Assembly: GCA_937899725.1 (NCBI GenBank)
Contig: CALCCA010000106.1
Coordinates: forward strand, 1-42,596
Source of the DNA: an uncultured Halomicronema sp.
GTDB lineage: Bacteria; Cyanobacteriota; Cyanobacteriia; Phormidesmidales; Phormidesmidaceae
DNA: 42,596 nucleotides
Direction of reading: 5' to 3'
In this document: in pieces, positions 22,070 through 31,721 of the stretch
How positions within the stretch are numbered: position 1 is the stretch's first letter
Layout: each line of letters opens with the position of its first letter
Translations under genes and position numbers: made by a program
The notes under the pieces: generated by a model
What the model was told of the DNA's origin: nothing
Databases searched by the model: none
What the model saw: only the letters and a program-made list of their open reading frames with translations

Positions 22070-23083
22070 TTACCGATAAGATCTCAAAACGCTTTTGGCC
22101 TTAGATAAGTGGATAGCAACTTTCGTTGCTTGTTCCGCATTGCCACCAGGGAACAGAGAATTGCTAAATTCTGCAATATATTTCTCCATGTCTTCTACAG
22201 TGCAAGAAACTTTGCTGCCGCCCATCCATTGGTGAAAATGAGCATGCGTATCAGAAGCTATTGCAATGAGATTCAATTCCATATCGGCAAACTGGGGAGA
22301 AGACCTTTTATCAAACAGATGATGAACTTCTAAATCAAACTTGTGCACGCTCTGGCGACGATTGGTGATTTGACAGCGTCCTCGGGCTTGCCGTCTGACG
22401 CGATCCATTACTTTTTGGATGCGCTTATCCTTATCCGCTTCGTATTTCTCCAATGTGCTCAAGGCCTTAGGAGCGTAATCAGCGACGACCTTTACCCATT
22501 CTCGGCGATGCTTTTGAGTGAGTCGTACCCCCAGGTGTTTTCCCACTGCAGCAAGGCCAGAACGGCTGAGATATTTATGTTCAGATTCCTTTACCAGAAA
22601 GTCTTCTTCGATTTTAAGCGGCTCAATCTCTGTATTCTCACTGCGCTGAATTTCGATAAAAGTTCGATTTAAGACGTCTTGGCGCCTACCCAGGCCTAAA
22701 ACTCCCCGGCATGCTCTCGGTGCCAAAAAGGCTCTGCCAGACTCAAATACGAGTTGGCCATCACCCAGATCACTAATTTCCTGAACTCGCTTGGCCACCA
22801 TCAACCCTTTGAGGCGTCGATCTCGTTGTAATAGCCAACGCTTCCAGCGCTTTAAGAGTGGACGCTCCTCTTTTTTATGCTCTAAGTAGTTACAGATTTC
22901 TACTGCACCTTCAGGACTAAAAAGCCGCGAGCCAAACGGTCCCTGCTCAAAATGAACTTCCTTCAGCAATTCCCAATCATCATCGGGATCAGCGTCAAAA
23001 AAATCACATATATCAGCCAGCTTATCAAGCGTAATATCTAGCGCTTCTGCAAGCTCTTCATCGGTGATGTTGCACTTTCCCAT
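22070..23083 (-). CDS. HNH endonuclease-domain protein, second gene of a J-domain/HNH pair
   Basis: Protein of 337 aa. The C-terminal third carries an HNH-type beta-beta-alpha metal motif: CQIT (Cys237), then LEVHHLFDKRSSPQFAD (His254-His255), Asn271 in NLIAIASDTH, and His280 and His284, followed by QWMGG and CTVEDM. Only one of the usual zinc-ribbon cysteine pairs is present. The N-terminus (1-70) is acidic and helical, starting ITDEELAEALDITLDKLADICDF, which could be a DNA-binding or partner-binding head. Residues 75-230 are Arg/Lys-rich. The start has AGGAG 8-12 nt upstream. It follows the J-domain gene by 34 bp on the same strand, so the two form an operon. Nuclease activity is a prediction from the motif; the biological role is unknown, with defence, mobile-element or DNA processing functions possible. 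Confidence 0.85.
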   Translation of the reverse strand: MGKCNITDEELAEALDITLDKLADICDFFDADPDDDWELLKEVHFEQGPFGSRLFSPEGAVEICNYLEHKKEERPLLKRWKRWLLQRDRRLKGLMVAKRVQEISDLGDGQLVFESGRAFLAPRACRGVLGLGRRQDVLNRTFIEIQRSENTEIEPLKIEEDFLVKESEHKYLSRSGLAAVGKHLGVRLTQKHRREWVKVVADYAPKALSTLEKYEADKDKRIQKVMDRVRRQARGRCQITNRRQSVHKFDLEVHHLFDKRSSPQFADMELNLIAIASDTHAHFHQWMGGSKVSCTVEDMEKYIAEFSNSLFPGGNAEQATKVAIHLSKAKSVLRSYR

Positions 23084-23117
23084 CAGATTCTCCTGCTTTT
23101 CTTTAAGCGCACACTGA

Positions 23118-23663
23118 CTAATAGGCCGCCAACAGGCTGTCTCGCATCGTCTTCAGTTTCTCGAAGACTTCAGCACGCCCGCCCTGATCGGGATGATGCT
23201 CTTTAGCAAGTTGATTGAAGGCAGACTTAATATCTTCAGCCGTCGCCATTTTGGGATCGAGCTTGAATACTTTCCAAGGCAAAAAGTTACGGAGTACATC
23301 TACCCCATTAATGGAAGTTGTGCCAATTGAGTCCCGCTCATTATTGGGCAGTCCCACAAACTTCCGATAAATCTTAAACCACGCATCCTTCTTATTCATT
23401 CTGAGATTATGCTCTTGCACAAAAAGGCTAAAGATACTGTTTTTCTTGAGATCTTTGTAGGAAGCACAATTGAATTCGGCAATGACCGCCTTTTTTAAGT
23501 CCTGCATGCTGGGCTCAACGGCTTTAAAGGCTCCACCATTAACGAACTCAGCAAAAGACAATAGAACCTGTGGCTCGTATCCATGTTCTTCAGCTAATTC
23601 ATGGATTCGTGTTCTCACCTTATTGATGTTGGGACGATTTCTTCGGCTTGCTTTCTTTGCCAT
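23118..23663 (-). CDS. J-domain protein with C-terminal J domain, first gene of a J-domain/HNH pair
   Basis: Protein of 181 aa. The last 50 residues form a J domain: WKVFKLDPKMATAEDIKSAF, then LAKEHHPDQGG with the Hsp70-activating HPD at 157-159, and a final helix FEKLKTMRDSLLAAY. The J domain is at the C-terminus, as in some specialised co-chaperones and viral or mobile-element proteins, not the N-terminus as in DnaJ. Residues 1-125 are Lys/Arg-rich and helical (NKVRTRIHELAEEHGYEPQ) with no match I can name. A strong ribosome site (AAGGAG, about 8 nt) supports the ATG at 23663. It heads the operon whose second gene encodes the HNH protein. Recruitment of DnaK to a nuclease complex is inference. 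Confidence 0.82.
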   Translation of the reverse strand: MAKKASRRNRPNINKVRTRIHELAEEHGYEPQVLLSFAEFVNGGAFKAVEPSMQDLKKAVIAEFNCASYKDLKKNSIFSLFVQEHNLRMNKKDAWFKIYRKFVGLPNNERDSIGTTSINGVDVLRNFLPWKVFKLDPKMATAEDIKSAFNQLAKEHHPDQGGRAEVFEKLKTMRDSLLAAY

Positions 23664-24385
23664 CTGTTTTCTCCTTATGAAAATTCACTTCCAGTACAAG
23701 TTAATCCTAGTCAAGAGAGATTTAAAAAATTACTGAGAAGCTTAACCCCTAGCAGCAGGGAGTTAATCAGATGAGAGAATATAGCTTCTAAGAATCTTTA
23801 AGCAATAGCATATGGACACACCCAATCTCTCATCCACTTCTGTTCAACAGGTATTTTTCATGATCTATACAGCCATAAGGCCTCAGAGAACCATAAGGAT
23901 TCTAGAACGCTTATTTGTTGACAAGTAGAAGTCAGGAGTCAACAAAACAAATGTTTTGTAGAGAGCATCTGGTTGTTACTTTCCTGGCATCTCATTTTAT
24001 TTGGCTAGGCATAGACTATCTTTAATGATCTCTTTTAAGCCTCAGCACCCTCAGCCATTCGCTCTAATTTTCGGTGACCTCATAGTGCCCAAAACCTAAA
24101 GTTGGTCATCATCAATTACTCGTAAATCAACAGCCGTTGATTATTCTTGCCGATAGCTTAAACTGTTGACCAAACAAGCAAATATTTAGAGTAGAAGTGA
24201 TAGAAATCACAGCCGTTTTATTATCCGGCTTGCACAAATCGCTCTTCACTGAGACGTGCATTCGCTCAGCAGCCCTGCTCCTGGCTGACGGTTCTCGCCC
24301 AGGGCACCAGAATCAGTCCTAAATTCTGCCATTGCCTGAGCTGGGAAGCACCACCGCCAGCCGTCATGAATTTTATTAGCGATCG
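23664..24385. other. AT-rich 720-bp gap upstream of the J-domain/HNH operon
   Basis: Clearly AT-richer by eye than the rest of the window and without a coding frame of note. It should contain the operon's promoter close to 23664-23760. It also holds the overlapping palindromes at 23914-23958 and a small GTGAT/ATCAC dyad near 24200. The composition suggests acquired or decayed DNA. Confidence 0.55.
23914..23958. promoter_or_regulatory. Overlapping inverted repeats, possible operator or element end
   Basis: TTTGTTGAC (23914-23922) is perfectly complementary to GTCAACAAA (23938-23946) across a 15-nt spacer. Overlapping it, CAAAACA (23943-23949) pairs with TGTTTTG (23952-23958) over a 2-nt loop. 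They lie about 250-300 bp upstream of the J-domain gene. They could be a repressor site, a decayed transposon terminus or a hairpin RNA; sequence alone cannot decide. Confidence 0.4.
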
Positions 24386-29643: not shown

Positions 29644-30492
29644 TTAAGAATCGTTGGGCGACAGCGCCTTCATCGCCGCTTGCTGCCCCACAGTTTGATA
29701 CAGATCACGCAGGTGGGCCATCACAATACGTGCATCGCTAACGGGTAGCGGAATGTTGTCGAGCATATCCAGCACGGTCGAACTGGAGGGCGTCACGACT
29801 ACCAAAGAAGACTCCAGAGGCTGATCGTATTGCCAAAAGGTGCTGATATCCACCGGCGCAGCGACGGGCTGGACGATCGCTGCTGGCACACTCGTTGAGG
29901 TAGCTGAGGCAGCTGCCGTCACCGTCGTGCCATCAACTGACTGCTGGCGCTTTTGCCGCAGTGAATCGAGAATCTGGGCGCGATCGCGTCCCCGCAGCTG
30001 AAACAGAATAAACGGATCTTCGCGAAAAAAGTCGCCCAGTTGATAGTACACAGCAGCGATATGCTTGCAGGGATTCTTCGGATCGGGGCAGTCGCATTTG
30101 GAATGCACCTCCGACAGCTGAAAGGGGAACAAACTCAACCCATTGGCGGTAAATACGGCCTCAATGTCATCGGGCATCTCGCCCGCCAAAAGCTGAGCCG
30201 AAAACAACGCATGTTCTGCCAGGCTATCGACCACATAGTTCCAGTCTTCATCGGTGAAGGCATCCAGCCAGATTGAGAGCTTGTAAGGTTCTTCTGCAGT
30301 GCCCTGCACCAAGGCAATCACCTTCGCTCCTTTGTATTCAATGTTAAGAATATTGCCTTCACGGGCATAGCGACGCCCCCTTTCGAGCCGTTTCTTAAAG
30401 CGATAGTTGTTGAGCAAATCAACCCAACGCTGCACCCACCACGCTTCTTCTTCGAGCTCAAAATTGGGAGCGGCTTGAAAGCTGTTAACCAT
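29644..30492 (-). CDS. SWIM zinc-finger protein
   Basis: Protein of 282 aa with a SWIM-type CxCx(n)CxH zinc finger: Cys133, Cys135, Cys142 and His144 in KCDCPDPKNPCKHIAAVYY. The N-terminal 130 aa are typical of bacterial SWIM proteins that accompany SNF2-family helicases (WWVQRWVDLLNNYRFKKRLERGRRYAREGNI). The C-terminal 100 aa are Ser/Val/Ala-rich and probably disordered before a last helical segment. In many bacteria the gene sits beside an SNF2 helicase, but none is present here within 12 kb. AGGAT about 9 nt upstream supports ATG 30492. Likely nucleic-acid or protein binding; detailed role unknown. Confidence 0.92.
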   Translation of the reverse strand: MVNSFQAAPNFELEEEAWWVQRWVDLLNNYRFKKRLERGRRYAREGNILNIEYKGAKVIALVQGTAEEPYKLSIWLDAFTDEDWNYVVDSLAEHALFSAQLLAGEMPDDIEAVFTANGLSLFPFQLSEVHSKCDCPDPKNPCKHIAAVYYQLGDFFREDPFILFQLRGRDRAQILDSLRQKRQQSVDGTTVTAAASATSTSVPAAIVQPVAAPVDISTFWQYDQPLESSLVVVTPSSSTVLDMLDNIPLPVSDARIVMAHLRDLYQTVGQQAAMKALSPNDS

Positions 30493-30725: not shown

Positions 30726-31721
30726 CTACAGGCTGACTTGGCTCAGGTGGCTGCGCGGATCGCGAGTCCGTTGATTTTTGATCTGTTCATATAGCTGACG
30801 TTCTTGATCAGACAGAGACTTGGGAGGCGTGATCACTACTCGCACCAACTGATCACCTCGAGCCCCTTTAGGGCTGGGCCAGCCTTTGCCCCGCAGCCGC
30901 AGCGACTGCCCCGACTTGACGCCGGCCGGCAGGTTCATAGTGACGCTGCCATCGGGGGTCGGCACCTGAATTGGGCCACCGAGGACGGCCTCATCTGGCG
31001 CGATCGGCACTTCGCACACCAGCTTATCCCCGTCGAACTGAAAAATGTGGTGAGGCAATAGGCTGACAATCAGGTAGATATCACCTCGTTGCTTTGAGTA
31101 GGGATTCAACTGTCCTTTACCCCGCAGGCGCACCTTGGTTCCTTGCTTTGCCCCGGCTGGAATGCGTACTTCGACCTCATTTTCGCCAATTTTCAGGCGC
31201 TTTGAGGTACCTCGAAAGGCTTCACTAAGACTCAGCGAGATTTTTGCCTCTTGGTCAAAGGTCTTCTGTGACGGCCCGCCCACATTCGGATCGGTGCCAA
31301 AGCCTCCCCTAGGTGCCGTACGATAAGACGTGTAGCCCCCCGGTGCAGCGCCCCCAGTGCCCCCAAAACCGCTGTTGCCAAAGCGGCCTAGCAGCTCGTT
31401 GATGAACTCATCAAAACTGCCATAATTGCTAAAGTCAAAATTGCCATCGCCGGGAGCTCCGCCACCGTAGGCTGTACCTCGGCTAGCCTGCTGCCAATAG
31501 CGACCAAATTGATCATATTTTTGGCGTTTGTCGTTATCCGACAACACCTCGTAGGCTTCACTAATTTCTTTGAATTTGGCTTCAGCAGCACTGTTATTGG
31601 GGTTAACGTCAGGATGATACTTCCGAGCTAATTTACGAAACGCTCGTTTGATCTCATCAGCGCTGGCCGATTTGCTGACTCCCAGCGTTGAATAATAGTC
31701 TTTGAAGTCTGTCGCTGCCAT
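30726..31721 (-). CDS. Type II DnaJ/CbpA-like co-chaperone
   Basis: Co-chaperone of DnaK, 331 aa. The J domain (about 5-70) has the invariant HPD at 36-38 ([10 protein letters not shown]), then a Gly/Tyr-rich linker with several GGAPG-type runs. The C-terminal substrate-binding domains begin [20 protein letters not shown] and continue with [25 protein letters not shown]. There is no CxxCxGxG zinc-finger module, so this is a class B (CbpA/DnaJ2-like) protein, not DnaJ itself. AAGGGA about 8 nt upstream supports ATG 31721. No dnaK or grpE is in the window. Confidence 0.95.

What the first reader, a model, noticed from the sequence alone, without database searches (positions are those of the whole stretch)
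22070..23663. Two-gene unit: C-terminal J-domain protein plus HNH-nuclease-like protein in an AT-richer island
Seen: same strand, 34-bp gap, both with strong ribosome sites; the first gene has an HPD J domain at its very C-terminus (157-159), the second an HNH motif (His254-255, Asn271, His280/284). The flanking 720-bp gap is AT-rich and gene-poor, unlike the rest of the window. Known: HNH nucleases are common in defence, homing and phage systems; J proteins recruit Hsp70 to specific clients. Inference: the pair could be a defence or DNA-processing module in which DnaK/Hsp70 remodels or releases a nuclease. I do not know of a described system with this exact pair.
Basis: partly seen in the sequence, partly recalled or inferred. 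Interest (0 to 1): 0.62.

Follow-up and report, generated by a model that had tools for sequence, protein, structure and literature searches.

The report
J-protein plus HNH nuclease gene pair
A conserved two-gene cassette, scattered through cyanobacteria, pairs a DNA-cutting-type enzyme with its own helper that should summon the cell's Hsp70 chaperone; it looks like an undescribed conflict system, possibly antiviral, but its function is untested.

Summary
In 386 genomes of the window's phylum, all 31 full-length HNH genes lie beside the J gene; in a named set, 53 of 56 J genes have HNH sequence directly downstream. Otherwise no gene family occurs in more than 6 of 57 loci, so this is no housekeeping locus. 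A 95%-identical relative lacks the pair. The HNH protein has two tandem MerR-like winged-helix modules plus an HNH domain with conserved H-N-H residues. The J protein ends in an HPD J domain; the domain before it is shared with phage proteins, some of 'polyvalent' type. Both genes are under purifying selection and their trees mirror each other. Microcystis alleles differ chiefly in the first winged-helix module, as if recognition had been swapped. Best reading: an accessory DNA nuclease controlled by a dedicated Hsp70 co-chaperone, most likely against phage or mobile DNA. Activity, DnaK recruitment and defence are inferred. The defence-island test was inconclusive; homing and toxin-antitoxin readings remain open.

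The parts
23118..23663 (-). J-protein gene, 181 aa; first gene of the pair
23250..23504 (-). Pre-J domain (residues 54-138; motif W..xYR+..G....E....G...INGxDx.K...PW.V..L), shared with phage proteins
23121..23288 (-). J domain, residues 126-181, HPD at 157-159; protein ends with the helix after HPD
22070..23083 (-). HNH-nuclease gene, 337 aa; second gene of the pair, 34 bp after the first
22868..23077 (-). First winged-helix module, MerR-like (residues 3-72); its counterpart differs between Microcystis alleles
22514..22750 (-). Second winged-helix module (residues 112-190), an internal duplicate of the first
22169..22432 (-). HNH (beta-beta-alpha-metal) domain, residues 218-305: C237, H254, H255, N271, H280, H284, C294
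22041..24378 (.). Segment absent from the close relative G416, which has 347 bp there instead, within an ORF of 129 aa with a KTSC domain
23664..24385 (.). AT-rich 722-bp intergenic region upstream of the pair; no Rfam family found in the window

Best explanation
The pair is one accessory genetic unit of cyanobacteria. Its second gene makes a DNA nuclease: two tandem MerR-like DNA-binding modules choose or grip the target, and a C-terminal HNH domain nicks or cuts it. Its first gene makes a dedicated co-chaperone: a client- or signal-binding N-terminal part plus a C-terminal J domain that recruits DnaK/Hsp70. The co-chaperone most likely brings the nuclease to DnaK, to keep it folded but restrained until invading DNA or phage proteins appear, or to load and release it on DNA. 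The most likely use is defence against phage or other mobile DNA. SHOWN by computation: the fixed pair, conserved catalytic and HPD residues, purifying selection, mirrored trees, patchy distribution with gain or loss, a divergent first module between alleles at one locus, no full-length family nuclease without the J gene in the set searched. INFERRED: nuclease activity, DNA binding, DnaK recruitment, contact between the two proteins, and the defence role.
For: 31 of 31 full-length HNH places in 386 genomes have the J gene adjacent; 3 of 34 J places lack HNH. In a named set seeded by J, 53 of 56 J loci have HNH sequence directly downstream, 4 of the 53 truncated or split. Where a member is broken or absent it is the HNH alone or both. 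H254, H255, N271, H284 invariant in 41 of 41, H280 in 40 of 41. HPD invariant in 40 of 40. AlphaFold pLDDT 92.6 and 89.4; HNH part resembles EcoKMcrA (Z 6.9) and phage T5 SciA (Z 6.2), N-terminus resembles MerR regulators (Z 6.6); J domain resembles the DnaK-bound J domain (Z 7.2, 1.7 A over 55 residues). Internal duplication of the winged helix E 5e-6. Mirror trees r 0.73, best of 2000 permutations 0.25. dN/dS 0.04-0.39 for both genes in the 10 pairs of loci compared. Absence in G416; divergent copies in one genome. Microcystis alleles. Divergent second pair in G080. Pre-J-J module in phage proteins.
Against: No PADLOC or NCBIfam system recognises it; defence-gene enrichment around it not shown; no phage-resistance data; no methyltransferase or other self-marker that recurs beside it, so how host DNA is spared is unexplained. 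Z values of 6-7 are middling by the tool's own note. The module difference is seen in one genus; family-wide that module is not the most variable part. The mirrored trees were not corrected for host relatedness. No complex could be predicted.
Confidence: 0.45

Rival explanations
1. A selfish, homing-like cassette: the HNH nuclease cuts cassette-free sites so that repair copies the cassette in, and the J protein helps fold or turn over the nuclease.
For: Phage HNH families are the nearest profiles. The cassette is absent in a close relative, and in Microcystis G357 and G253 it sits elsewhere while the usual right flank is found without it. In 1 of 43 loci scanned (L176) a tmRNA gene, a classical integration site (recalled), lies 240 bp upstream of the J frame.
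Against: Neighbourhoods differ; in the other 42 scanned loci no tRNA lies nearer than about 5 kb; in the window no inverted repeats, and the only direct repeat (14 nt) has one copy inside the HNH gene. In the window the site is replaced rather than simply interrupted (347 bp against 2338 bp). A fixed J partner is not typical of homing enzymes (recalled).
Confidence: 0.2
2. A toxin-antitoxin-like pair: the nuclease harms its own cell unless the J protein (with DnaK) holds it, giving stabilisation or abortive infection.
For: J gene first; 0 of 31 full-length HNH without J, while J is found alone or beside broken HNH.
Against: No match to either protein in 72,556 plasmid records; toxicity untested; the two N-terminal DNA-binding-like modules suggest targeted rather than general cutting.
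Confidence: 0.2
3. A domesticated phage module kept for a host DNA-repair, recombination or gene-control role.
For: The pre-J-J module occurs in phage proteins. Foldseek rows among viral models include regulatory, antirepressor and Bro-N proteins at E 0.02-0.3, and one uncharacterised Staphylococcus phage protein at 5e-4.
Against: No HNH relative in the stretches of viral contigs that carry the J module. Patchy presence (29 of 386 genomes with a full-length HNH) argues against a core role.
Confidence: 0.12
4. Chance neighbours in an AT-rich island.
For: None beyond the local composition.
Against: 31 of 31 and 53 of 56 adjacency, mirrored trees.
Confidence: 0.01

Closest known systems
J-domain proteins other than DnaJ/CbpA (class C, also called type III; names recalled)
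   Same: HPD J domain with helices on both sides and a unique client-type region
   Different: J domain at the very C-terminus, a conserved pre-J domain, and a fixed nuclease partner gene
HNH endonucleases of phages and McrA-type (type IV) restriction enzymes
   Same: HNH domain; nearest phage profiles phrog_119, 144, 8048; fold match to EcoKMcrA Z 6.9
   Different: N-terminus is two tandem MerR-like winged helices; co-chaperone gene always beside it
Phage polyvalent proteins (Iyer et al. 2017, PMC5512222; passages seen)
   Same: The pre-J-J module is the C-terminus of open frames of about 930 aa in 18 closely related viral contigs (the one scanned, L064, has LPD1 and matches phrog_616; the five translated have HEW[GA]HALD), and of a protein in L236 beside a protein with a weak ART-PolyVal match
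   Different: The cyanobacterial J protein is small and free-standing; the paper's held main text has no occurrence of DnaJ or J domain
Chaperone-linked conflict systems: Hsp70/GrpE and DnaJ-fused proteins in GAP1-N2 GTPase systems and SecB-type toxin-antitoxin-chaperone systems (PMC7159879, passages), Hsp70-McrB fusions (PMC11090510, passages), DnaJ-dependent bNACHT25 (PMC12169576, abstract)
   Same: A folding chaperone or co-chaperone gates an effector or is needed for phage sensing
   Different: None of the passages seen describes a two-gene J-protein plus HNH nuclease unit; here the co-chaperone belongs to the unit, and dnaK was not found within the fetched flanks of the 56 named loci

Membership tests
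J-domain proteins | HPD tripeptide between helices II and III | tested here: met
   HPD invariant in 40 of 40 aligned proteins; helices 142-156 and 164-180 around it; fold Z 7.2 to DnaK-bound J domain
J-domain proteins | binds DnaK and stimulates its ATPase | not testable with these tools
   needs biochemistry
Class A/B DnaJ | J domain followed by the DnaJ C-terminal domain (and CXXCXGXG zinc centre in class A) | tested here: not met
   only the DnaJ domain, at 133-171, was matched in Pfam
HNH (beta-beta-alpha-metal) endonucleases | His, Asn, His on the two strands and helix | tested here: met
   H254, H255, N271, H284 invariant in 41 of 41, H280 in 40 of 41; strands 251-255 and 272-276, helix 277-286 in the model
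HNH (beta-beta-alpha-metal) endonucleases | DNA cleavage | not testable with these tools
   needs biochemistry
MerR-type winged-helix DNA-binding domains | fold of the N-terminal module | tested here: inconclusive
   residues 4-74 match 5d90 Z 6.6, 3.1 A over 60 residues, with several MerR regulators close behind; Z below 8
Catalogued anti-phage defence systems | match to a catalogued system protein | tested here: not met
   PADLOC: J none; HNH only two weak rows at E 0.005 and 0.03
Defence-island gene | enrichment of defence genes next to it | tested here: inconclusive
   near: 153 PADLOC families hit, commonest matches 3 of 150 proteins; far: 75 families, 1 of 100 each among those shown. Only the top 25 families are shown and the number of proteins with any match is not given. 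Pfam near: Uma2 3, PIN 3, C5 methylase 2, phage integrase 2 of 150, no far control
Type II restriction-modification | adjacent cognate methyltransferase | tested here: not met
   a C5 methylase family occurs in 3 of 57 loci (L167, L175, L178); 2 C5 methylases among 150 near neighbours
Homing endonuclease cassette | fixed cognate insertion site | tested here: not met
   neighbouring families differ between loci, at most 6 of 57 share one, and the cassette lies at more than one place within Microcystis; a short cut site inside varied neighbourhoods was not looked for
Toxin-antitoxin system | effector not maintained without partner | tested here: met
   0 of 31 full-length HNH without J; 3 of 34 J without HNH
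Toxin-antitoxin system | effector toxic alone, neutralised by partner | not testable with these tools
   needs an expression test
Phage polyvalent proteins | large multi-domain packaged or injected protein | tested here: not met
   the J protein is 181 aa; the shared part is the pre-J-J module

The most novel reading that the evidence does not exclude
A new class of bacterial immune system: a sequence-targeted HNH nuclease whose activity is gated by Hsp70 through its own J protein, with the J protein's pre-J domain, shared with phage polyvalent-type proteins, acting as sensor or decoy for phage attack on the host DnaK machine. Exchange of the first winged-helix module between alleles would change the nuclease's target, as target-recognition-domain exchange does in restriction systems.
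Probability: 0.3. Interest if true: 0.88.

Novelty: new variant of a known kind. Interest (0 to 1): 0.68.

Why it matters
I know of no described system that pairs a dedicated J-domain co-chaperone with an HNH nuclease, and none appeared in the listings of eight full-text searches (for only 15 of 50 and 12 of 117 papers were listed). It would make the role of Hsp70 in controlling a DNA-cutting effector directly testable, and it links phage polyvalent-type proteins and host cassettes through a shared J module.

Tried and rejected
Fixed housekeeping neighbourhood: rejected; apart from J and HNH the commonest family recurs in 6 of 57 loci (56 named loci plus the window; many contigs end within the 10-kb flanks). 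Defence islands: inconclusive, because the tool gives family counts and not the number of proteins with any match. Plasmid carriage: no match at E 1e-5 for either protein. Isolated phages: no HNH match; J matched only the dnaJ of one Bacillus phage, in two records. Sequence search of solved structures with the HNH profile: six rows at E 0.016-0.26, none a nuclease. Foldseek against PDB: nothing at E 0.001 for the HNH model; top rows Septu PtuAB (0.29) and a retron HNH chain (0.79). J model against viral models: nothing at E 0.001. No Rfam family in the window. A clean Microcystis empty site could not be drawn: the empty alleles share the right flank but the left side differs. dnaK beside a cut-short J remnant in G157 was not seen at the 56 named loci, so I treat it as coincidence. 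Family-wide hypervariability of the first winged helix: looked for, not found; in some pairs of loci that module is the better conserved part (e.g. L149/L150, L184/L186).

Full report
WHAT IS THERE. The J domain is one bit below Pfam's cut-off (26.8 against 27.8 bits, E 5e-6) and at the very C-terminus. The HNH protein has no Pfam match at a cut-off; its phage HNH family matches have best E 2e-6. The 722-bp region upstream of the J gene is 39-41% GC.

THE PAIR IS REAL AND CONSERVED. A first search of 386 genomes of the phylum gave 31 full-length HNH places; the 29 fetched as loci were examined, and in all 29 a J gene lies directly upstream on the same strand, gap -10 to +100 bp, most often 2. 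Profile searches of 386 genomes found 31 full-length HNH places in 29 genomes, all 31 with a J place beside them by coordinates, and 34 J places in 32 genomes, three without HNH: G022, G121 and the cut-short G157. In three of the 31 rows the match runs over the gene's own stop codon; the reading frames themselves are open. Four further genomes gave partial HNH matches: G237 (pieces, one with stops), G221 (fragment with stops), G121 (a 203-aa HNH protein with no J gene seen beside it) and G080 (see below). A separate scan of named genomes, seeded by the J protein's pre-J domain, returned 56 loci, all cyanobacterial by title; 53 have HNH sequence directly downstream, of which L141, L174, L179 and L188 look truncated or split, and L156, L185 and L195 have none, the last two with a broken J gene. 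This second set was found by J, so it cannot show lone HNH genes; the 386-genome set can, and shows none at full length.

SURROUNDINGS. Apart from J and HNH no gene family recurs in more than 6 of 57 loci, and among 150 near neighbours the commonest Pfam families occur 3 times. So this is not a housekeeping operon. Whether defence genes are enriched is open: PADLOC hit 153 families near (commonest 3 of 150 proteins, a methyltransferase; PDC-S03 2 of 150) and 75 far (1 of 100 each among those shown), without a count of matching proteins. Pfam shows Uma2 in 3, PIN in 3, C5 methylase in 2 and phage integrase in 2 of the 150, without a far control. Some loci share synteny (L159, L162, L173, for example), so part of the spread is vertical. 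Of 43 loci scanned for tRNA, one has a tmRNA gene 240 bp upstream of the J frame and two have tRNAs about 5 kb or more away.

GAIN AND LOSS. A relative of the same genus, G416, matches the window at 95.5% up to 22040 and at 94.3% from 24379; the 2338 bp between, with both genes, are missing, and 347 bp lie there instead, most of a KTSC-domain ORF. The genus of G095, which I take for Microcystis because four of its contigs have the lengths of named Microcystis contigs, has 12 genomes held; 10 gave an HNH match, two of those partial. Of nine cassettes aligned, six share the downstream flank; G357 and G253 carry the cassette elsewhere while the usual right flank occurs without it; the ninth ends early. 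Several divergent copies can sit in one genome or MAG: two in Myxacorys californica and in Nodosilinea FACHB-131, three in a Prochloron MAG.

THE HNH PROTEIN. AlphaFold gave pLDDT 92.6. Residues 4-74 resemble MerR-family regulators and other winged helices; residues 217-333 resemble EcoKMcrA, phage T5 SciA and Cas9 HNH domains; Z values are 5-7, which the tool calls middling. Residues 3-68 and 117-185 are an internal duplication (profile comparison E 5e-6; the HNH domain as control gave 0.2-0.3). C237, H254, H255, N271, F283 and H284 are invariant in 41 of 41.

THE J PROTEIN. pLDDT 89.4. The chain ends with the helix that follows HPD, so a fourth J-domain helix is missing; HPD is invariant in 40 of 40. 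Before it lies a conserved domain with the motif W..xYR+..G....E....G...INGxDx.K...PW.V..L. A scan of viral contigs for this domain gave 20 loci. Eighteen, closely alike, are the C-terminus of open frames of about 930 aa; the one scanned has LPD1 and phrog_616, and the five translated have HEW[GA]HALD. L079/L235 is a 270-aa stand-alone protein. L236 lies beside a protein with a weak ART-PolyVal match, below Pfam's cut-off. The HNH relative is absent from the fetched stretches (for L061-L140; for ten loci including L236).

EVOLUTION. Trees of J and HNH (51 pairs) correlate at r 0.73; the best of 2000 permutations reached 0.25. Relatedness of hosts contributes to this and was not separated. dN/dS was 0.04-0.39 for both genes in 10 pairs of loci. 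In Microcystis two allele groups, three members of each at the same downstream flank, are 92-99% identical over the J gene and most of the HNH gene but 65% over the first 100 and 81% over the next 100 bases of the HNH gene; within groups these stretches are 97-99%. dS there is 0.44-1.01 against 0-0.15 elsewhere in the gene. The simplest account is replacement of the first winged-helix segment by recombination. Across the family that module is not the most variable part, and in some pairs of loci it is the better conserved one.

A SECOND FORM. In G080 a 348-aa protein whose C-terminal part is this HNH domain (E 1.4e-18 for one genome; 65 bits) follows, after 10 bp, a 222-aa protein with a C-terminal HPD J domain (17 bits to the J part of the family profile; Pfam DnaJ E 0.001, below the cut-off). 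Neither N-terminal part matched the family profiles. It is one case in 377 genomes, and its J domain rests on weak scores plus HPD in place, but it suggests that J and HNH stay together while the rest is replaced.

MECHANISM. The anatomy says: DNA-binding-like modules plus nuclease domain in one protein, Hsp70 recruiter in the other. From the established role of J proteins (HPD-dependent stimulation of DnaK, recalled), the J protein should deliver a client to DnaK; the nuclease is the obvious client because the genes are so rarely parted. The one-sided loss pattern suggests the nuclease is unsafe or useless without its J protein. Mobility, patchiness, several copies per genome, module exchange and the phage link fit a conflict role best; defence against invading DNA is the likeliest form, at under even odds.

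LITERATURE. Eight searches of the held library showed no J-protein/HNH pair in their listings; only part of the papers was listed. Related ideas: DnaJ is needed for phage sensing by bNACHT25 (PMC12169576, abstract); Hsp70 and GrpE with DnaJ-fused proteins occur in GAP1-N2 GTPase conflict systems (PMC7159879, passages); Hsp70-McrB fusions (PMC11090510, passages); J-domain co-chaperones in jumbo phages, predicted to recruit host Hsp70 (PMC7824862, passages); polyvalent proteins (PMC5512222, passages, no DnaJ or J domain in the held main text). Passages of PMC3720927, PMC3710099 and PMC11237433 held nothing on such a pair. Most subscription papers, and bioRxiv as such, are outside that library.

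Noticed in passing
window 30726-31721 and 29644-30492: An ordinary DnaJ/CbpA-type gene (J domain plus DnaJ_C) lies 7 kb away on the same strand, next to a SWIM zinc-finger protein gene.
   Followed up: no
L217 3553-3942: In the relative G416 a KTSC-domain ORF occupies the site where the window has the pair; the site may be a variable slot.
   Followed up: partly
L061-L078, L236: A J domain forms the C-terminus of polyvalent-type phage proteins (LPD1 in the one scanned; weak ART-PolyVal neighbour in L236), not mentioned in the held main text of the polyvalent-protein paper.
   Followed up: partly
L267 860-2585: Divergent J plus HNH pair in G080 with both N-terminal parts unlike the main family.
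   Followed up: partly
L176 9200-9589: A tmRNA gene, 240 bp upstream of the J frame in one locus.
   Followed up: no
L244 595-743: A repeat of about 130 bp with many copies per Microcystis genome lies just upstream of the cassette.
   Followed up: no
L028 and L029 (HNH C-termini): Two HNH proteins carry long C-terminal extensions, one rich in Pro-Thr repeats.
   Followed up: no
L269 370-2910: A J-gene remnant cut before its J domain sits directly upstream of dnaK in G157.
   Followed up: yes
L268 1751-2359: A shorter HNH protein (203 aa) related to this HNH domain, with no J gene seen beside it, in G121, which also has a lone J gene elsewhere.
   Followed up: partly
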